From Robiginitalea aestuariiviva (GTDB lineage Bacteria > Bacteroidota > Bacteroidia > Flavobacteriales > Flavobacteriaceae), in contig NZ_JARPUQ010000002.1 in assembly GCF_029537735.1 (NCBI RefSeq), positions 260,608-324,607 on the forward strand: a stretch of 64,000 nucleotides of DNA, given 5' to 3'. Under the pieces are notes generated by a model. That model was not told the DNA's origin. It was given only the letters and a program-made list of their open reading frames with translations, and searched no databases. The position numbers and the translations under genes are program-made. Shown here in pieces: positions 51,564 through 59,910 of this stretch. Positions within the stretch are counted from its first letter, which is position 1, and the number at the start of each line of letters is the position of its first letter.

Positions 51564-54257
51564 CTATTGTTCCCGCACAACCCGAAAGCCGGTATGCCCG
51601 GCCTCGGGGTGGGTTTCCGGGTCCATGGGATCTACAAAATCGTAGGCGCTGTAGTCGTATGCCTTCAGGGCCTCCCCGTCCATATAGTATTCCGCCACAT
51701 TCCCGCCCAGGTCAAAGACTTCGGCCCCTTCCGCAAGTTTTACCATGGGGTGGCTGCCCCCATCATGGATCAGGGAGGCTTTCAGGCCTTCCATTTTTTG
51801 ACGGAGCCCCGGCACATCCAAGGCGGTAAGGGCATAGCCGGCCCATTGGTTCAGGTTATTCTGGTTTTTATAGGCACTCCGGGCCTTCTTGTGCAGGCGC
51901 TCGGCCTCTTTGGCGTTGGGTAGGCGGTAGGTATCGCCGGTTTGGGTGCTCAGCCATAGGAGATAACCCGATATTTTTTCTGCGGAGAGGCCGGTTACCG
52001 GTCGGTTGGCCTGCAGGCGGTCAAAGGATTCCCCTGTATAGGCATGGTATTGGGCCAGGGTCACCTCATGCGCTCCTATGGCAATACTGTCCTTGCCCAG
52101 GGATACCATGGCGGGGTAAAGTTCTCCGTCCACTGATGTTCCAAGCAAGCCGTCTGCAGCCATCTGTTCCTGCAGTTTAAGTAGGCTGGCCAGGGGGCTG
52201 TCTTTTTTGAACGCCTCGTTCTCTGCCTTGGCTGTGCCAAAGAGGTAGGTGTCAATCCATGCGATCTCTTCCTTCATCTTGCGCAGTTGGTGGGTAATTT
52301 TCTGCAACCCGTGTGGCTGGCCGGGGAACCAGAGGAATTTCACCGGGGCCTGGCCTACCTGCTGCAGCCCGCGGTAGTATTCCCACCCCTGGTCCCGGGG
52401 AACCGCCCGGTCTTCACTGCCATGGAAGATAATGGTGGGCGTTTTGATCTTTTCGATTTCGAAGATGGGGGAGTATTTGATGTACCACTCGTTGTAATGC
52501 TTCCCGTTGGTGTCGTCCCAGGGCGCCCCCCCAAAATAGCTCTGGTCGAAGGTGACGCCAAAGCGGCAGGTGCCGTAGTCCGAGGTCCAGTTGATGTCGC
52601 CGGCCCCCGGGGCGGCCACCTTAAACATATCCGGGTATTTCAGGGTCATCCAGGTGGTCAGGATGGCCCCGTTGGACCAGCCCATGGTGCCCAGCTTGTC
52701 CATGTCGATCAGCCCCAGGCTGTTCAGGTGCATGATCCCATTGTAGATGTCAATCTGCTCCAGGGAATAATAATTCCCGTTTTTGATGGATTCGATAAAG
52801 GCCTGGCTGTGGTTTCCTGACCCGTGGTAGTTGGGCTTCAGCACAAAGGCCCCTTTATCCGTTAGGATCTGCGGGTAGGTAGACCAGCGCTCGGACCACT
52901 GGTCCTGGTCTACCCCGGTAGGCCCGCCGTGGATGCTCAGCACCAGGGGGTACTGCTTCCCGGCCTCATAGCCTTTGGGGTAGTAGAGGATGCCGTTTAC
53001 CTCCTCGTCATTGGCCCCTTTCCAGTAGATGATTTCGGATTTGGCAATGGGTTTTTTCTTCAGTTTGTCGTTCAGGGAGGTAAGCGTTTGGGTACCTTCC
53101 AGCGTCACCCCCTTGCGACCAATGCGCACGGTGGCCAGGTAGTATTCCGGGAGTTGGGAGGCGGTGGAATGCCGGTAGAGGATGCGGCCCGACGCCTCGC
53201 TGAAAGCCAGGACGGCGCTGTGCTCCTTCCGGTTGCCCCATTCAAAATCCATACCGGCCCAGGCTGTTCCCCTTTTCTGGTAATAGCGCACTTTGCGCAA
53301 AGGGCCGTTGGCCAGTTGTGCAATCACATCATCCCCGTTGAGGTAGTAGGCCCCGCCCAGGCCATTTTCCCATCCCAGGGGGACTTTGGTATAGGTCCCG
53401 GCCGCCAGGTCGTAAAAGTAAAGTTCCCGGATGCCGGCCCCGTTCCACTGTGGGTCCGAGGAGGAGGTGGCCGAAAAGTAGAAGCCGCTGCCGCTGCGGG
53501 TAAACACAAACCCGCCGGGTTCCTGCAGTTCCCGGAACAGGGTCTGGCTGCTTCCCGTTTGCAGGTCCAGCAGCACATAATTGGGTTTGGGGTTGCCGTC
53601 CGTGCCGTAATCCGGGGAGGTAATTTCCGTATAGACCAGGTAGTTCCCATTTTCGGATACGGCATAACCCCCAATACGGTATCGGTTTTCGGTGATGCGG
53701 CGGATTTTCTTGTCCTTCAGGTTAAAGGCATAGAGCCTGCGCGGGTTCCAGTGCAGGGTGTCTTCCACGATATTGGTATTGTCCTTTTCGTGGGTAATGT
53801 CGTAAAGGGTTTTGCCTTCCCCGGCCACAAAGAGGAGTTCGGTGCTGCCCAGACGCTGCAGGCTGCCAATCCCATTTTCAAATTTGTGGACCTCTTCGGG
53901 TTCGCCCCCGCCCAGATTCAGTTTCCAGAGGGATTTCCCTTTTTCGCGGGTGGAGAGGAAATACAAGCTCTGGCCATCCGCAGCAAATACTGCATTGGAT
54001 TCGCTGGATTTCCCCCGGGTGAGTTGCACGGGCTTAGGGGAGTCTTCGCCCAGGCGGGCCAGGTAGAGCTGGCTTACAAATTTATCCTCCTCCTTCAGGC
54101 CTTTGCGCTGGCTCCAGACCAGCTCGCTGCCGTCTTTGGAGAATTCGGCGTTGTCCACATACACGGTGTGGATGATGTCTTCAGGGGTCCATGGGTTTTG
54201 CTGGCCCCAGGCCAGGCAGGGAAGGGATGCCAGTAGCATCCAGGCAAATTTTCTCAT
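51564..54257 (-). CDS. S9 family peptidase fused to a formylglycine-generating-enzyme-like domain
   Basis: The 897-residue secreted protein has a signal peptide (MRKFAWMLLASLPCLAWGQ), a beta-propeller of WD/PD40-type strands (about 25-420) and an S9 alpha/beta-hydrolase domain (about 430-690). The nucleophile is Ser528 in GTMGWSNGAILTTWM, the Asp lies in FHGSEDRAVP and the His in PGQPHGLQ. After a helical linker, residues about 735-897 resemble FGE/sulfatase-modifying factor: IAIGAHEVTLAQYHAYTG, NRPVTGLSAEKISGYLLWLS, FDLGGNVAEYYMDG and GHTGFRVVREQ. The peptidase should cleave oligopeptides in the periplasm. The appended domain lacks an evident Cys pair and is probably non-catalytic. It heads an operon with the MFS gene. 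Confidence 0.88.
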   Translation of the reverse strand: MRKFAWMLLASLPCLAWGQQNPWTPEDIIHTVYVDNAEFSKDGSELVWSQRKGLKEEDKFVSQLYLARLGEDSPKPVQLTRGKSSESNAVFAADGQSLYFLSTREKGKSLWKLNLGGGEPEEVHKFENGIGSLQRLGSTELLFVAGEGKTLYDITHEKDNTNIVEDTLHWNPRRLYAFNLKDKKIRRITENRYRIGGYAVSENGNYLVYTEITSPDYGTDGNPKPNYVLLDLQTGSSQTLFRELQEPGGFVFTRSGSGFYFSATSSSDPQWNGAGIRELYFYDLAAGTYTKVPLGWENGLGGAYYLNGDDVIAQLANGPLRKVRYYQKRGTAWAGMDFEWGNRKEHSAVLAFSEASGRILYRHSTASQLPEYYLATVRIGRKGVTLEGTQTLTSLNDKLKKKPIAKSEIIYWKGANDEEVNGILYYPKGYEAGKQYPLVLSIHGGPTGVDQDQWSERWSTYPQILTDKGAFVLKPNYHGSGNHSQAFIESIKNGNYYSLEQIDIYNGIMHLNSLGLIDMDKLGTMGWSNGAILTTWMTLKYPDMFKVAAPGAGDINWTSDYGTCRFGVTFDQSYFGGAPWDDTNGKHYNEWYIKYSPIFEIEKIKTPTIIFHGSEDRAVPRDQGWEYYRGLQQVGQAPVKFLWFPGQPHGLQKITHQLRKMKEEIAWIDTYLFGTAKAENEAFKKDSPLASLLKLQEQMAADGLLGTSVDGELYPAMVSLGKDSIAIGAHEVTLAQYHAYTGESFDRLQANRPVTGLSAEKISGYLLWLSTQTGDTYRLPNAKEAERLHKKARSAYKNQNNLNQWAGYALTALDVPGLRQKMEGLKASLIHDGGSHPMVKLAEGAEVFDLGGNVAEYYMDGEALKAYDYSAYDFVDPMDPETHPEAGHTGFRVVREQ

Positions 54258-54325: not shown

Positions 54326-54967
54326 TTAAATAATCCCCCAGTCCATCGCTTTTTTGATCATGCCCACGGAGTTTTTAACCTCCATTTTTACAAAGAGGTT
54401 CCTTTTATGGGTGGCCACGGTATTGGTGCTTACGAACAGCTGGTCCGCAATTTCCTGGGTGGTGAGTTCCTGGGCGATCAGTTTCACCACCTCAATTTCC
54501 CGCTTGGTGATCATGGGGATGGCCCCTTCTTTGGCTTTGGGATGATCCGTCAGGCTTTCGATCATTTTTTCGGTCAGGTGGCTGCTGATGACCTTTTTCC
54601 CTTCATGGGCGTCCTTTATCCCCTGGATCAGGTAATCCTTGGACGCATTCTTTAGCAAGTACCCGGTAGCCCCGGCTTTAAACAAAGAGGTGATTATACT
54701 GCCTTCGTCATTGGTGGTCAGCATGATGATTTTCAAGTCCGGAAATGCCTTTCTGGCGTGCATGGTGGTTTCCAGCCCGTCCATAACCGGCATTTGAAGG
54801 TCCAGCAGCAAGACGTCTACCGGTTCTTTTTTAAGGAACTCCAGGGCTTCCAGGCCATTGCCTGCCGTGCCTACTATGTCCAGTGACCTGTCTTTGGCCA
54901 GGATGGCCTTTAATCCATCCACCATAATCTGGTGGTCGTCCGCGATAAGTACCTTGATCTTTTCCAT
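54326..54967 (-). CDS. NarL/LuxR-type response regulator
   Basis: The 213-residue protein has a receiver domain (phospho-acceptor Asp56 in VLLLDLQMPVMDG, with Asp10/11 in IADDHQ, Thr in IIMLTTND and Lys in GYLLKNAS) and a C-terminal LuxR HTH (ITKREIEVVKLIAQELTTQEIADQLFVSTNTVATHKRNLFVKM). All phosphorylation residues are intact. It is encoded six bases downstream of its partner kinase. It ends in front of the S9 peptidase gene, and its targets are unknown. Confidence 0.95.
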   Translation of the reverse strand: MEKIKVLIADDHQIMVDGLKAILAKDRSLDIVGTAGNGLEALEFLKKEPVDVLLLDLQMPVMDGLETTMHARKAFPDLKIIMLTTNDEGSIITSLFKAGATGYLLKNASKDYLIQGIKDAHEGKKVISSHLTEKMIESLTDHPKAKEGAIPMITKREIEVVKLIAQELTTQEIADQLFVSTNTVATHKRNLFVKMEVKNSVGMIKKAMDWGII

Positions 54968-54973
54968 ACGCTA

Positions 54974-56857
54974 TTATTGATTTAGCCGGGCCTGGTCCGT
55001 ATCGGTTAGGGGGATATTGATCGTCACCAGCGTACCCACCCCCGGCCGGCTGTTGAGGTCCAGCGTGCCTCCTATAAATTCGGTCCGGAAGGCCATGCTC
55101 TTCAGGCCCATGCCTTTCTCTTTTTCCGCCGCATGCAGGTCAAACCCTATCCCATCGTCTTCTATGGTGAGGTCAAACCAGTCTTCGCTATAGGTAATCT
55201 GCACCAAAACCTCCGTGGCCTGGGCATACTTTACAATGTTATTCATGGCTTCCTGCACAATCCGATAAAGCATCACGTTGGTGGTATCGTCAAAAATCCT
55301 TTCGGTACCGTGTACCTGGAAATCTGCCTGGAACCCGTGAATGGCGTCCATTTTCAGGACCATATCCTCCAGGGCCCGGCGAAGCCCCAGTTTCTTAAGG
55401 GATTGCGGCATCATTTCGTGGGCAATCTTCCGCACCTCGGTACACGCTTCATCGATCATCTGGCTGGCGGTGCCATAGATCCTTTTGGAATTCTGGTCGT
55501 CGAAATTGATTTGTAAACTGCCAATGTTCACTTTCAGGCTCGACAGGAGGTTGCCCAACCCGTCGTGCAGGTCACGGGCAATGCGGGTGCGCTCGTTTTC
55601 CTGCCCCTCCAGCATGGAGCGCATGGAGATGATCTGCTGTTCCCGATGCACCTCATGGAGTTTTAACTTTTCGGACTTGATGCGATTCTTAAAATAGAGA
55701 AATCCGGATAAAGAGACCAGGAGCAACCCTATCAAAGAAAATAACAGCAGATTCACCCGCTGCTGGGATTTTTGATTGGTTACCTCTTCTTCAAGCAACT
55801 GTATCCTTAACTGGTCCGTTTCGAACCGAACCTTCATATCCGCAAAGGCTTCCAGGCTGCTTTCACTTAGTTTGGACGCTTCCTGCATACGGGTTTGCCG
55901 TTCCAGGATGTCATAGGCGGCCTTATAGTCCTGGTACAAAAGGTGTTTCTGGCGCCGCACATCCTGGATGTAATTCTGCAACCCCATCCGCTCCGCAAGT
56001 CCCGGGGCTTGTTCGGCCGTTAAAATCAGGTCTGTGGAATGCGCAAAGCCATGCGCCTGGATCGAATCAAACAGGGCGGTGGTATCCAGGCCTTTCCCGG
56101 CAGCCTCATACATCATCGACGCCACGCTTATCATCGATTCAACCACCCCGATATTCTGTGCCTGCTTCCGGTGTTTATAGCCTTCAAAGTAGTTGGAGAT
56201 GGCTGCCCCCAGATCCCCGTTTAACCGGTGGCATTCCCCCATACCCTGGTAGAGCCGGGCAATATCGATATGGGCTATGGGGTCCTCACTTAACCGGTAC
56301 TTCAGGGCCTGGCGATACTTTTTCAGGGCCTCCCCCGGGTTGCCCCCGGTGTATTCGGCTACAGCCCAATTATTCAGGATGCCTGCCTTGCGTTCTTCGT
56401 CCGGGATACGGGAAAAAAAATCATACGCGTTCTGAAAGGCGCGCATCGACTCCTCTATAGCACCGTATTCCAGTAGGATTACACCCCGGGTGTCGGCCAC
56501 GTTTCCCAGGCCATACAGGTCATCGATGCGTGTGAAATAGGATGCGGCACTATCGAGGTAGGCCGTTTTCCGGTCCATGGCCTCCAGCTTCAGGCACCAG
56601 GCCAAGCGGTGGAAAGACTTGCCGATCAGTACCGGGCTGTTCAGTTTCCGGGCCAATTCCAACCCCCGGGAAGCATAGTCTTCTGCGGCATCCCCGGCAT
56701 ACAACAGATAGGCAATCCTGAGATAGGTCTCGCATTTCAGGGAGTCTTCCGGCATCGAAACAACCACGGAGCGCAAGCTGTCCAATTCACTGGACTGACC
56801 GCGCATCAGGACAATACTGAAGAGCATTAAAAAAATACATAGCCTTTTTGCGCCCAT
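54974..56857 (-). CDS. HisKA_3 sensor histidine kinase with TPR sensor region
   Basis: The 627-residue kinase has a signal sequence (MGAKRLCIFLMLFSIVLMRGQ) and a periplasmic TPR array (about 30-330, including AGILNNWAVAEYTGGNPGEALKKYRQAL). One transmembrane helix lies near 365-385, a coiled coil follows, then a HisKA_3 dimerisation domain with phosphorylated His431 in RIARDLHDGLGNLLSSLKVN. The HATPase_c domain has VQEAMNNIVKYAQATEV (N box) and IEDDGIGFD (G1). It feeds the adjacent NarL-type regulator. The start at 56857 is supported by a promoter-like element at 56948-56977; an upstream ATG at 56950 would overlap that box. Confidence 0.92.
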   Translation of the reverse strand: MGAKRLCIFLMLFSIVLMRGQSSELDSLRSVVVSMPEDSLKCETYLRIAYLLYAGDAAEDYASRGLELARKLNSPVLIGKSFHRLAWCLKLEAMDRKTAYLDSAASYFTRIDDLYGLGNVADTRGVILLEYGAIEESMRAFQNAYDFFSRIPDEERKAGILNNWAVAEYTGGNPGEALKKYRQALKYRLSEDPIAHIDIARLYQGMGECHRLNGDLGAAISNYFEGYKHRKQAQNIGVVESMISVASMMYEAAGKGLDTTALFDSIQAHGFAHSTDLILTAEQAPGLAERMGLQNYIQDVRRQKHLLYQDYKAAYDILERQTRMQEASKLSESSLEAFADMKVRFETDQLRIQLLEEEVTNQKSQQRVNLLLFSLIGLLLVSLSGFLYFKNRIKSEKLKLHEVHREQQIISMRSMLEGQENERTRIARDLHDGLGNLLSSLKVNIGSLQINFDDQNSKRIYGTASQMIDEACTEVRKIAHEMMPQSLKKLGLRRALEDMVLKMDAIHGFQADFQVHGTERIFDDTTNVMLYRIVQEAMNNIVKYAQATEVLVQITYSEDWFDLTIEDDGIGFDLHAAEKEKGMGLKSMAFRTEFIGGTLDLNSRPGVGTLVTINIPLTDTDQARLNQ

Positions 56858-56947
56858 GCCGGTTTTTGTTTCGGTAAAAATCAGTGCCCCACATGCCCGT
56901 TTGGCAAGCACGTTCACCAGGGCCCTAATAAGGGGTTCGAATAAAGT

Positions 56948-56977
56948 CAAAGGTATTTAATTCCAAATTTCCGGCAA
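56948..56977 (-). promoter_or_regulatory. Promoter of the histidine kinase-regulator operon
   Basis: Read on the minus strand, TTG at 56977-56975 is followed after 19 bases by TACCTTTG (56955-56948), a full -33/-7 match to the Bacteroidota consensus. The leader to the start at 56857 is about 85 bases. Confidence 0.5.
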
Positions 56978-57001: not shown

Positions 57002-57017
57002 TCACACAATTGTGTGA
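57002..57017. promoter_or_regulatory. 16-bp perfect palindrome of TGTGA/TCACA type
   Basis: TCACACAATTGTGTGA is self-complementary and lies between the divergent kinase and cyclase genes. The half-site TGTGA is that of Crp/Fnr-superfamily sites, though the arrangement (TCACA outwards) is reversed relative to the E. coli Crp consensus. Confidence 0.5.
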
Positions 57018-57034: not shown

Positions 57035-57056
57035 CTGTGATTTTTAAGAATCACAG
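57035..57056. promoter_or_regulatory. Inverted repeat CTGTGATT-N6-AATCACAG
   Basis: Eight-base arms at 57035-57042 and 57049-57056 flank TTTAAG. TGTGA and TCACA are in the Crp orientation but separated by ten rather than six bases. The centre is about 57 bases upstream of the start site implied by the -7 box at 57089. Confidence 0.5.
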
Positions 57057-57143: not shown

Positions 57144-58469
57144 ATGGCGAACCAAATTACTTATGCCGCGATTAACCGACAGGTCCCCTTCGAGGGGGCA
57201 CCGGGGACCCTTCTGGATATCTCCATCAGGAATAAAATCCCACACCTGCACGAATGCGGCGGCAATGGCATCTGCACTACCTGCAGGATCCGGATTCTGG
57301 AAGGTTCCCAGAATTTAAGCCCCAAGACGGAGTTTGAAAAAACCAGTTCGCATGTTCGGAAGTGGGACCCTTCCATTCGCCTGGCCTGCCAGGCCAGGCC
57401 TCGGGGAGACGTCACCATCCAACGCCTGATCTGGTCCAGCGGGGAAGTCAACAACCTGCAAAAGGAACTGGTGCCCACCGGCAGGGCCGAGGAACGGCCC
57501 ATCGCCATCATTTTCTGCGACATCCGGAATTTCACCAACCTCTCTTCCCACAACCTGAACTTCGATATCGCTTATATGCTGAACAAGTTCTACACCGCCC
57601 TGGGCGAGCCTATCCTGATGAACAACGGGGTTATTTACCAGTATGTAGGGGATGAAATTATTGGCGTTTTCGGGACCACGGGCGGCACGGCCCGAAAAAA
57701 CTGCGAGGATGCCATCCGGGCGGCCCTGGGCATGCAATACGCCCTGGATGCCCTGAACCGCTCAGATTTAAAGGACATCGACATCAAACTCAAATCCGGG
57801 ATCGGCATCAACTTTGGCACCGCATTTATCGGCCACCTGGGCCACCCCACGCACAAACAATTCTCCGTGATTGGCGATCCGGTCAATGTGGCCAGTAGGA
57901 TACAGAATGAAACCAAGGTTACCGGCACCAACATCCTGATCTCCGATACCGTGCTGGCCAATGTGGACAAGGATATGATCGTAACCGGGCGAGACTTCCT
58001 GAACCAGGTGGCCGGCAAGGACGACCCGGTAAAACTGTATGAGCTGCTGGGCTTCCGGGAGATGGATCTGCAGCTGGAGTTGCAGGCATCCATGAACCTG
58101 ATGCTGGAAGACGAGGAAGCGTTTGCTAAAATCTTCTATGAAAAAGTCTTTACCCTGGCACCCCATGTGCGGAACCTGTTTCGGAATAATATGACCGACC
58201 AGGGGAGGCTGCTTACCCATATGCTGGGGGGCATTGTGTATTCCCTGTCCAGGCCGGAACACCTGAAAAGGGGCCTGTCCAAACTGGGCCAGAGCCATGT
58301 ACATTACGGGGTGAAGGATGAATACTATCCCGTGGTAAAGCAGGCCATGCTCGAAACCATAGACCAGGTACTGGGGGAGGCACAATCCCCCCAGGCCCTG
58401 ACCGCCTGGGGCACCGCCCTGGATTTTGTGATTGAAGCCATGAGATCCGGTGCTCATGTACATGCTTGA
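57144..58469 (+). CDS. Ferredoxin-class III nucleotide cyclase-globin fusion
   Basis: The 441-residue soluble protein has three modules. Residues 1-95 form a [2Fe-2S] ferredoxin with Cys38, Cys44, Cys47 and Cys82 (C-x5-C-x2-C-x34-C, adrenodoxin-type spacing). Residues about 115-300 form a class III cyclase with metal-binding Asp126 (FCDIRNF) and Asp170 (YVGDE) and transition-state residues Asn248/Arg252 (DPVNVASR). The purine-selecting positions are Gln166 and Ser241 rather than Lys and Asp/Thr, so ATP versus GTP use is uncertain. Residues about 310-436 form a globin with proximal His385 (SHVHYGVKDEYYP) and possible distal Gln353. It probably makes a cyclic nucleotide in response to O2, NO or redox state. 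The oxidase gene follows 43 bases downstream. Confidence 0.88.
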   Translation: MANQITYAAINRQVPFEGAPGTLLDISIRNKIPHLHECGGNGICTTCRIRILEGSQNLSPKTEFEKTSSHVRKWDPSIRLACQARPRGDVTIQRLIWSSGEVNNLQKELVPTGRAEERPIAIIFCDIRNFTNLSSHNLNFDIAYMLNKFYTALGEPILMNNGVIYQYVGDEIIGVFGTTGGTARKNCEDAIRAALGMQYALDALNRSDLKDIDIKLKSGIGINFGTAFIGHLGHPTHKQFSVIGDPVNVASRIQNETKVTGTNILISDTVLANVDKDMIVTGRDFLNQVAGKDDPVKLYELLGFREMDLQLELQASMNLMLEDEEAFAKIFYEKVFTLAPHVRNLFRNNMTDQGRLLTHMLGGIVYSLSRPEHLKRGLSKLGQSHVHYGVKDEYYPVVKQAMLETIDQVLGEAQSPQALTAWGTALDFVIEAMRSGAHVHA

Positions 58470-58512: not shown

Positions 58513-59910
58513 ATGTCAACAAAAACCAAGGTAAAGGAGCTTTCCAAATCGGATTTGGAAGCTTTTGCCAGCCAGATCAGAGGGGATGTCATATTCCCTG
58601 AGGATGAGAAGTACAACCAGACCCGGAAGGTCTACAATGCCATGATAGACAAGCGTCCAGGTCTGTTTGTAATGTGCGTGGACGTAGCCGACGTGATCTA
58701 TGCCGTCAATTTTGGCCGGGAACACAACCTGCTGGTCGCTGTGCGCGGCGGGGGCCACAACGGCGGGGGCCTGGGGTTGTGTAACGACGGGATGGTCATA
58801 GACCTCTCCGGCATCAAATTCGTGCATGTAGATACGGACCAGCGCACCGTGAGGGTGGGCGGGGGCAATGTATGGGGCGAGGTAGACCACGCCACCCATC
58901 CGTTTGGCCTAGCGGTACCCGCCGGGATTATTTCCAGCACCGGCGTTGGGGGGCTTACTCTGGGCGGCGGGGTAGGATACCTGTCGCGAAAATACGGCCT
59001 CACCATAGACAACCTGCTTGAGGCAGACATGGTGCTGGCCGACGGCTCCTTTGTTACGGTGAATGCCAACCAAAATGCCGATTTGTTCTGGGCCATCCGG
59101 GGCGGGGGCGGCAATTATGGCATTGTAACTTCTTTTAAATTCCAGGCCCACCCGGTGAAAACGGTGGTGGGAGGCCCTACCCTGTGGCCTATTGAGCGGA
59201 TAGATGAGGTGATGGCATGGTACCACGATTTTATCCATAAAGCCCCGGACGAGTTGAACGGCTTTATCGCAACCCTGGTGATCCCGGGCCCGCCCTTCCC
59301 GGAATCCCTGCACAACAGGATGTTCTGCGGTATTGTCTGGGCGTATCTGGGCGACCCTGCCCGGCAAGAGAAGGTGTTCAAACCCGTCATGGCGATGGAG
59401 CCGGAGTTCCACCATGTGGGCGAAATGCCCTATCCCTCCCTGCAAACCCTCTTTGACGGTATGCTGCCTCCGGGCCTGCAGTGGTACTGGCGTGCCGATT
59501 ACTTCCAGGAACTGGGGCCGGAAGTGCGGGCCCAGCACCTGGAATTCGGTTCCAGGATCCCCACGCCCCTTTCGCAGATGCATCTCTACCCGATTAGCGG
59601 GGCCGCCGGCCGGGTGGGGAAGGAAGATACGCCCTGGGCCAACCGGGATGCCTTATACGCCGGGGTGATTGTGGGGGTAGACCCGGACCCCGCCAATGCC
59701 TCCAAAATCACGGACTGGTGCAAGGACTACTGGGAAGCCCTGCACCCGTATTCCACCGGCGGGGCCTACCTGAACTTTATTATGGACGAAGGGCAGGAAC
59801 GGATCAAGGCCAGCTACAAAGGCAATTATGAAAGGCTTGCAAGAATCAAAAAGAAGTACGATCCCGGGAATTTCTTCCGGGTAAACCAGAATATCGTTCC
59901 CGCGGAATGA
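58513..59910 (+). CDS. FAD-linked oxidase, berberine-bridge-enzyme type
   Basis: The 465-residue protein has a PCMH-type FAD domain (CVDVADVIYAVNFGREHNLLVAVRGGGHNGGGLG) with His82 as the probable 8-alpha-histidyl FAD attachment. It then has GGGNVWGEVDHATHPFGLAVPAG and STGVGGLTLGGGVGYLSRKYG, and a C-terminal BBE segment (YERLARIKKKYDPGNFFRVNQNI). The second, cysteinyl FAD link of bicovalent members is missing (Leu-Ser-Arg at that place), so monocovalent flavin is expected. No signal peptide is visible. Such enzymes oxidise sugars, alcohols or alkaloids using O2. It lies 43 bases after the cyclase-globin gene and is probably co-transcribed, ending at a strong terminator. Confidence 0.92.
   Translation: MSTKTKVKELSKSDLEAFASQIRGDVIFPEDEKYNQTRKVYNAMIDKRPGLFVMCVDVADVIYAVNFGREHNLLVAVRGGGHNGGGLGLCNDGMVIDLSGIKFVHVDTDQRTVRVGGGNVWGEVDHATHPFGLAVPAGIISSTGVGGLTLGGGVGYLSRKYGLTIDNLLEADMVLADGSFVTVNANQNADLFWAIRGGGGNYGIVTSFKFQAHPVKTVVGGPTLWPIERIDEVMAWYHDFIHKAPDELNGFIATLVIPGPPFPESLHNRMFCGIVWAYLGDPARQEKVFKPVMAMEPEFHHVGEMPYPSLQTLFDGMLPPGLQWYWRADYFQELGPEVRAQHLEFGSRIPTPLSQMHLYPISGAAGRVGKEDTPWANRDALYAGVIVGVDPDPANASKITDWCKDYWEALHPYSTGGAYLNFIMDEGQERIKASYKGNYERLARIKKKYDPGNFFRVNQNIVPAE

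What the first reader, a model, noticed from the sequence alone, without database searches (positions are those of the whole stretch)
57144..58469. Ferredoxin-nucleotide cyclase-globin triple fusion
One soluble protein joins a [2Fe-2S] ferredoxin (Cys38/44/47/82), a class III cyclase (Asp126, Asp170, Asn248, Arg252 present) and a globin (His385). Ferredoxin-cyclase and globin-cyclase pairs exist separately in bacteria, and globin-coupled sensors normally have the globin at the N-terminus. Having both a redox cofactor and a C-terminal haem domain around a cyclase suggests an O2/NO and redox integrator. The purine-selecting residues are Gln166 and Ser241, so the product is not obvious.
Basis: partly seen in the sequence, partly recalled or inferred. 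Interest (0 to 1): 0.87.

Follow-up and report, generated by a model that had tools for sequence, protein, structure and literature searches.

The report
Ferredoxin-cyclase-globin signalling enzyme
A bacterium carries one soluble protein that joins an iron-sulphur domain, a signal-making cyclase and a haem globin, and relatives keep the same three-part build, which suggests a switch that turns oxygen or redox state into a cyclic-nucleotide signal.

Summary
Window 57144-58469 (+) encodes 441 aa with Fer2, class III cyclase and Globin domains in that order, all above Pfam cut-offs. I found 23 distinct full-length fusions, all in Bacteroidota, the only phylum searched in depth. Cluster cysteines, catalytic residues, Gln166 and globin pocket residues are invariant in the 21 aligned. 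All three domains are under purifying selection; the fusions form one clade. In 13 of 23 loci a histidine kinase gene diverges from the fusion; those 13 share a palindrome found once in the window's genome. The Fer2-cyclase core is shared with rhizobial proteins that resemble Sinorhizobium CyaC, a redox-regulated cyclase with two haems and a [2Fe-2S] cluster. Best reading: a soluble CyaC analogue in which a C-terminal globin replaces the membrane haem anchor. Unexpectedly, 5 of 23 loci carry a PycTM (Pycsar effector) gene downstream, and short PycTM genes sit beside class III cyclases far above chance. Product and ligand are unproven. No listing of ten paper searches showed this architecture.

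The parts
57144..58469 (+). Fer2-class III cyclase-globin fusion gene, 441 aa
   Evidence: with this one, 23 distinct full-length loci
57189..57404 (+). Fer2 [2Fe-2S] domain (residues 16-87), cluster ligands Cys38, 44, 47, 82
   Evidence: cysteines invariant in 21 of 21
57438..57485 (+). linker helix between Fer2 and cyclase (about residues 99-114)
   Evidence: helix 99-112 in AF2 model; linker about as conserved as the domains, 0.638 mean pairwise identity
57495..57995 (+). class III cyclase domain (residues 118-284): metal Asp126/Asp170, Asn248/Arg252, base-selecting Gln166/Ser241
58134..58442 (+). flavohaemoglobin-type globin domain (residues 331-433): Tyr332 (B10), Phe346 (CD1), Gln353 (E7), His385 (F8); position names recalled
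58513..59910 (+). downstream FAD-linked oxidase (FAD_binding_4 + BBE), 43 bases after the fusion; co-transcription inferred
   Evidence: same neighbour in 10 of 23 loci
54974..56950 (-). divergent TPR histidine kinase (623-aa orthologues suggest a start near 56857, judged by eye)
   Evidence: orthologue in 13 of 23 loci
54326..54967 (-). NarL-type response regulator beside the kinase gene
   Evidence: seen in 12 of those 13 loci (L009 ends inside the kinase)
57002..57017 (.). perfect palindrome TCACACAATTGTGTGA, likely operator for the divergent genes
   Evidence: 0-2 mismatches in 13 of 13 loci with the kinase, 5-7 in the other 10 of 10; one place in the genome at up to 2 mismatches
57035..57056 (.). 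second dyad CTGTGATTTTTAAGAATCACAG, same TGTGAT half-site in the opposite orientation
   Evidence: a related dyad is conserved in part of the Flavobacteriaceae loci

Best explanation
It is a soluble, homodimeric class III nucleotide cyclase gated by redox state and a haem ligand: a cytosolic counterpart of CyaC of Sinorhizobium. Shown: the three domains, their invariant functional residues, one clade of fusions, purifying selection, and a Fer2-cyclase core shared with rhizobial membrane proteins. Inferred: the [2Fe-2S] cluster exchanges electrons with the cell's redox pool and with the globin haem. O2 (or NO) binds the ferrous haem through the Tyr B10/Gln E7 pocket. The state of cluster and haem is passed through the short helix before the cyclase (residues 99-112), and from the helix after it, to the dimer interface where the active sites form. 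The product is a cyclic mononucleotide (cAMP is my first guess; Gln166 departs from the Lys of adenylate and the Glu of guanylate cyclases). In some relatives that nucleotide probably acts on a membrane PycTM protein encoded nearby. Supply is controlled by the divergent two-component system through the palindrome.
For: Domains above cut-off. Cys38/44/47/82, Asp126, Gln166, Asp170, Asn248, Arg252, Tyr332, Phe346, Gln353, His385, Tyr395 invariant in 21 of 21. dN/dS 0.00-0.16 in the pair-and-domain comparisons with measurable dS, apart from the nearly identical pair L004/L005 at 0.06-0.26. Triple fusions are one clade in both the core tree (23 fusions, 8 others) and the globin tree (23 fusions, 14 other globins), SH-aLRT 98 each. 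The core aligns with rhizobial proteins that have a hydrophobic N-terminus, Fer2 and cyclase and keep all four cysteines and the catalytic residues. CyaC of S. meliloti binds two haem B, is drawn with a [2Fe-2S] cluster and is redox-sensitive, with activation after oxidation by quinones (PMC10463352, passages); class IIIb cyclases with a ferredoxin behind a cytochrome-b-like 6TM anchor are described (PMC4821796, passages). L050 (R. etli) has a Fer2-cyclase core with a C-terminal stretch that I read by eye as Rieske-like (no profile run), so the core seems to accept different redox partners. Both linkers nearly as conserved as the domains (0.638 and 0.608).
Against: No cofactor, ligand or product has been measured. 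Gln166 is not the Lys of the rhizobial membrane forms, so the substrate cannot be transferred from CyaC. I did not align S. meliloti CyaC itself. The AF2 model is only moderate (mean pLDDT 79.2, pTM 0.64) and poor at residues 157-168 and 234-236, near the active site; cluster-haem distance in a dimer was not modelled. Core-tree relations outside the triple clade rest on long branches, which the program flags as possibly false.
Confidence: 0.55

Rival explanations
1. A gas and redox gated cyclase of Pycsar logic: its cyclic nucleotide opens a PycTM-type membrane effector, as defence or as a general membrane output.
For: PycTM genes lie directly downstream (L007, L008, L016) or after the oxidase gene (L001, L002), 5 of 23 loci; Pfam PycTM in the three scanned, PADLOC PycTM E 2e-30 and 1e-28 in the two scanned. 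In 50 family genomes 9 of 18 short PycTM genes lie within 3 kb of a class III cyclase against about 0.09 expected, but 0 of 36 long ones.
Against: 18 of 23 loci, the window's included, show no PycTM in the flank held, by a profile made from the nearby copies that does find the distant HD-PycTM control (flanks of L009, L012 and L014 are short). The 5 loci group together in the globin tree (SH-aLRT 85), though not as one fork in the core tree. PADLOC PycC models also match the six other class III cyclases that I scanned, at 50-114 bits against 60 for this protein, so that match is not specific. The CTP-selecting Arg142 and Gln144 of EaPycC (PMC11224242, passages) correspond by spacing to Gln166 and Val168 here. 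A PDB chain named cytidylate cyclase matches only weakly (E 0.022). The neighbours that I identified are metabolic or regulatory; no full defence scan was run.
Confidence: 0.2
2. Mainly an NO or O2 chemistry enzyme: Fer2 re-reduces the globin haem for NO dioxygenation, with the cyclase as a reporter.
For: Globin of flavohaemoglobin type, best NCBIfam match NO-inducible flavohemoprotein 53.8 bits, with Tyr B10, Gln E7 and His F8; Fer2 resembles, among others, those of oxygenase reductases.
Against: Far below the flavohemoprotein cut-off of 432 bits; no FAD/NAD reductase domain. Cyclase residues are invariant and the cyclase is the most conserved part.
Confidence: 0.15
3. A chance fusion with a dead or redundant domain.
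For: Only 7 of 149 family genomes and 3 of 395 phylum genomes searched have it.
Against: Functional residues of all three domains invariant in 21 of 21; dN/dS far below 1 in each.
Confidence: 0.03

Closest known systems
CyaC of Sinorhizobium meliloti and 6TM-ferredoxin-class IIIb cyclases (PMC10463352, PMC4821796; passages)
   Same: Haem plus [2Fe-2S] plus class III cyclase in one chain; rhizobial relatives L048, L049, L051 have Fer2 before the cyclase with all cluster cysteines and catalytic residues
   Different: Haem in an N-terminal six-helix membrane anchor, not a C-terminal globin; base-selecting Lys/Thr in L048, L049 and L051 instead of Gln/Ser
Rhizobium etli Fer2-cyclase with Rieske-like C-terminus (L050)
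   Same: Fer2-cyclase core with an extra C-terminal part that looks like a redox domain
   Different: Rieske-like stretch (read by eye) instead of a globin; 28.6% identity over the match
Globin-coupled sensors
   Same: Haem globin joined to a signalling output
   Different: Those have an N-terminal protoglobin-type sensor (recalled); here a PF00042 globin at the C-terminus and a Fer2 domain
HemAC-Lm, globin-adenylate cyclase of Leishmania (recalled, no call)
   Same: Globin and class III cyclase in one protein
   Different: Globin N-terminal, no ferredoxin, eukaryote
Pycsar (PycC + PycTM)
   Same: Class III cyclase with a PycTM gene downstream in 5 of 23 loci
   Different: No effector near the other 18 in the flank held; no PycC-specific feature found

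Membership tests
Class III nucleotide cyclase | Catalytic domain with two metal Asp and Asn/Arg transition-state pair | tested here: met
Class III nucleotide cyclase | Cyclase activity | not testable with these tools
   needs an enzyme assay
CyaC-type redox cyclase | Fer2 fused before the cyclase with four cluster cysteines | tested here: met
CyaC-type redox cyclase | N-terminal diheme six-helix membrane anchor | tested here: not met
   Fer2 begins at residue 16, no TM stretch by crude scan
Globin-coupled sensor | N-terminal protoglobin-type domain | tested here: not met
   the only globin match is PF00042, at 331-433
Flavohaemoglobin | Globin with Tyr B10, Gln E7, His F8 | tested here: met
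   position names recalled
Flavohaemoglobin | C-terminal FAD/NAD reductase | tested here: not met
   protein ends after the globin
Pycsar | Cyclase gene with PycTM or PycTIR effector gene | tested here: inconclusive
   PycTM in 5 of 23 loci, not beside the window gene; PycTIR not searched
Pycsar | Pyrimidine-selecting residues as in EaPycC | tested here: not met
   Gln166/Val168 where EaPycC has Arg142/Gln144, mapped by spacing to the metal Asp; the third residue, Phe, is present (Phe124); UTP type not mapped
Pycsar | Makes cCMP or cUMP on phage infection | not testable with these tools
   needs LC-MS and plaque assays

The most novel reading that the evidence does not exclude
A new sensor type: a cytosolic cyclase reading haem ligand and [2Fe-2S] redox state at once, with a non-standard base selector (Gln), whose cyclic nucleotide, possibly not cAMP, drives a PycTM-type membrane effector, so that a defence-type pair is wired to oxygen, NO or redox.
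Probability: 0.15. Interest if true: 0.85.

Novelty: new variant of a known kind. Interest (0 to 1): 0.62.

Why it matters
It suggests that the Fer2-cyclase core is a module that has taken different redox partners (membrane haem anchor, Rieske-like domain, globin), and gives a soluble system in which to ask how an iron-sulphur cluster and a haem jointly control a cyclase. The PycTM link raises the question of whether these effectors have non-defence cyclic-nucleotide inputs in Bacteroidota.

Tried and rejected
PADLOC PycC match as evidence for a pyrimidine cyclase: rejected, since six other class III cyclases match too. Separate globin genes beside Fer2-cyclase doubles: none in L024 (short flank), L044, L045, L070. 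Wider palindrome regulon: one place at up to 2 mismatches. Fusion on plasmids or phages: 0 records with 80% coverage in one place. The small membrane protein downstream in L013 and the 351-aa protein in L011 gave no Pfam match at 0.001 and no PADLOC match at 0.1. The Foldseek search showed only cyclase structures in the 50 rows listed of 1309, adding little. Second structure job not used.

Full report
WHAT IS THERE. The ORF at 57144-58469 (+) encodes 441 aa. Pfam places Fer2 at 16-87, Guanylate_cyc at 118-284 and Globin at 331-433, all above the curated cut-offs. NCBIfam gives six families, all far below cut-off (flavohemoprotein, nqrF, AcsV, ISC ferredoxin and others). PDB sequence matches are Cya2, CyaC and CyaB for the cyclase, single-domain, flavo- and non-symbiotic haemoglobins for the globin, and PnsB3, ISC-type ferredoxin and oxygenase-reductase Fer2 domains for the N-terminus.

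HOW WIDESPREAD. A genome-contig scan gave 25 pattern matches, 16 confirmed, and all 16 span residues 5 to 434 of the query or more. Most of the 120 genomes with any match have only a cyclase, Fer2 or globin stretch. In 395 genomes across the phylum 3 are full length (G000, G262, G482) and 2 are Fer2-cyclase doubles at E up to 1e-30; at most 4 candidates per genome were scored. This makes 23 distinct loci: window, L001-L016, L020-L023, L025, L026. The one in G482 is only 36-37% identical. Whole genomes of other phyla could not be sampled. On plasmids (556 records matched) none covers 80% of the query in one place; the best are rhizobial Fer2-cyclases. Phages: 7 records matched; the 5 listed match only the cyclase region. 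That the window's genome is a member of Flavobacteriaceae is inferred from its relatives.

CONSERVATION. Alignment A1 holds 21 of the 23 (L005 and L009 left out). Invariant: Cys38, 44, 47, 82; Asp126, Gln166, Asp170, Asn248, Arg252; Tyr332, Phe346, Gln353, His385, Tyr395. Position 241 varies (Ser or Ala). Over all 23, mean pairwise identity is 0.632 (Fer2), 0.638 (linker 1), 0.666 (cyclase), 0.608 (linker 2), 0.612 (globin). In nine pairs tested, dN/dS is 0.00-0.16 where dS could be estimated, except the nearly identical pair L004/L005 (0.06-0.26, few changes); dS was saturated in 6 of 27 pair-and-domain comparisons and large in others. Quick trees put the 23 fusions in one clade for the globin (against 14 other globins, all from the same family) and for the core (against 8 others), SH-aLRT 98 each; several rows outside have long branches, so the exact sister is unknown.

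THE CORE AND ITS RELATIVES. L048, L049 and L051 are proteins of Rhizobium and Phyllobacterium plasmids with a hydrophobic N-terminal part (by eye), then Fer2, then cyclase; L050 has Fer2-cyclase and then a stretch that looks Rieske-like by eye. All four keep the cysteines, metal Asp and Asn/Arg. Base-selecting pairs differ: Lys+Thr in L048, L049 and L051, Asn+Thr in L050, Asp+Ala or Glu+Thr in Bacteroidota doubles, Gln+Ser/Ala here; Gln+Thr and Gln+Ala also occur in two unrelated-architecture cyclases of the set, so Gln alone is not unique. PMC10463352 (passages) states that CyaC of S. meliloti binds two haem B in a 6TM domain and is redox-sensitive through quinones, and its figure legend names a [2Fe-2S] cluster. 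PMC4821796 (passages) describes a cluster of 30 class IIIb cyclases with a ferredoxin between anchor and catalytic domain. I therefore read the window protein as a soluble analogue in which the globin supplies the haem. The CyaC sequence itself was not compared.

NEIGHBOURHOOD. In 13 of 23 loci the kinase gene lies divergent to the fusion; the response regulator is beside it in 12 of these (L016 found by translation; L009 ends in the kinase). The FAD-linked oxidase follows in 10 of 23. PycTM lies downstream in 5 of 23 (L001, L002, L007, L008, L016), with Pfam E 9e-16 to 3e-13 in the three scanned; a profile from six copies finds no other in the flanks held of the remaining 18, while it does find the HD-PycTM control. 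Six further loci (L020-L023, L025, L026; flanks L036-L041) have other neighbours, partly identified.

THE PALINDROME. TCACACAATTGTGTGA at 57002-57017 has 0 mismatches in 11, 1 in L002 and 2 in L003 among the 13 loci with the kinase, always beginning 138-145 bases before the start codon. The other 10 have 5-7 mismatches, like 500 random window stretches (5-9). It occurs at one place in the own genome at up to 2 mismatches. I infer a local operator, perhaps for the neighbouring response regulator; binding is untested.

THE PYCTM LINK. In 50 family genomes I found 54 PycTM matches: 36 long frames (390 aa or more; HD-fused in the one scanned, L053) and 18 short. Of the short ones 9 lie within 3 kb of a class III cyclase match, about 0.09 expected from genome size and cyclase number; of the long ones 0 of 36. 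The own genome has one such cluster (TPR-cyclase, HD protein, PycTM; L052). So short PycTM genes are probably cyclic-nucleotide effectors in this family. This is not evidence that this cyclase makes pyrimidine products: six other class III cyclases match PycC models at 50-114 bits against 60 here, and two of the three EaPycC CTP residues are not present.

STRUCTURE. AF2 with A1: mean pLDDT 79.2, pTM 0.64, helix 99-112 before the cyclase, weak at 157-168. Foldseek top matches are CyaC and Cya2 catalytic domains.

LITERATURE. Ten searches. Four of the five that combined globin, cyclase and iron-sulphur terms returned no paper; the fifth listed one paper on placozoan NO signalling, not opened. 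I saw three papers in passages (PMC11224242, also its outline; PMC10463352; PMC4821796), the rest as search listings only. Subscription papers are mostly not held, so earlier mention of the architecture cannot be excluded.

VERDICT. Real, conserved and, as far as these searches show, undescribed; a new variant of the Fer2-class III cyclase kind. The mechanism is well framed by CyaC but untested.

Noticed in passing
window 51564-54257 (-): Prolyl oligopeptidase (Peptidase_S9) whose C-terminus shows a weak FGE-sulfatase match (19.5 bits, below the 23.3 cut-off), a possible unusual fusion.
   Followed up: partly
L050 2998-4392 (+), Rhizobium etli plasmid pRsp8C3c: Fer2-cyclase protein with a C-terminal stretch that looks like a Rieske [2Fe-2S] domain by eye; no profile run.
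   Followed up: partly
L052 3032-6282 (own genome C2): TPR-class III cyclase, HD-domain protein and convergent short PycTM gene side by side: a Pycsar-like cluster in the same genome.
   Followed up: partly
L012 3751-4527, L013 7351-8118: Small protein with 4-5 hydrophobic stretches (crude scan) directly downstream of the fusion in two loci, no Pfam or PADLOC match for the L013 copy; could be another membrane effector.
   Followed up: partly
L003 9077-10762 (-): A second class III cyclase-like ORF (561 aa) lies convergent, just after the oxidase gene in Robiginitalea sp. SC105.
   Followed up: no
50 family genomes: Short PycTM genes within 3 kb of class III cyclases in 9 of 18 cases, long (390 aa or more) PycTM proteins in 0 of 36.
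   Followed up: yes
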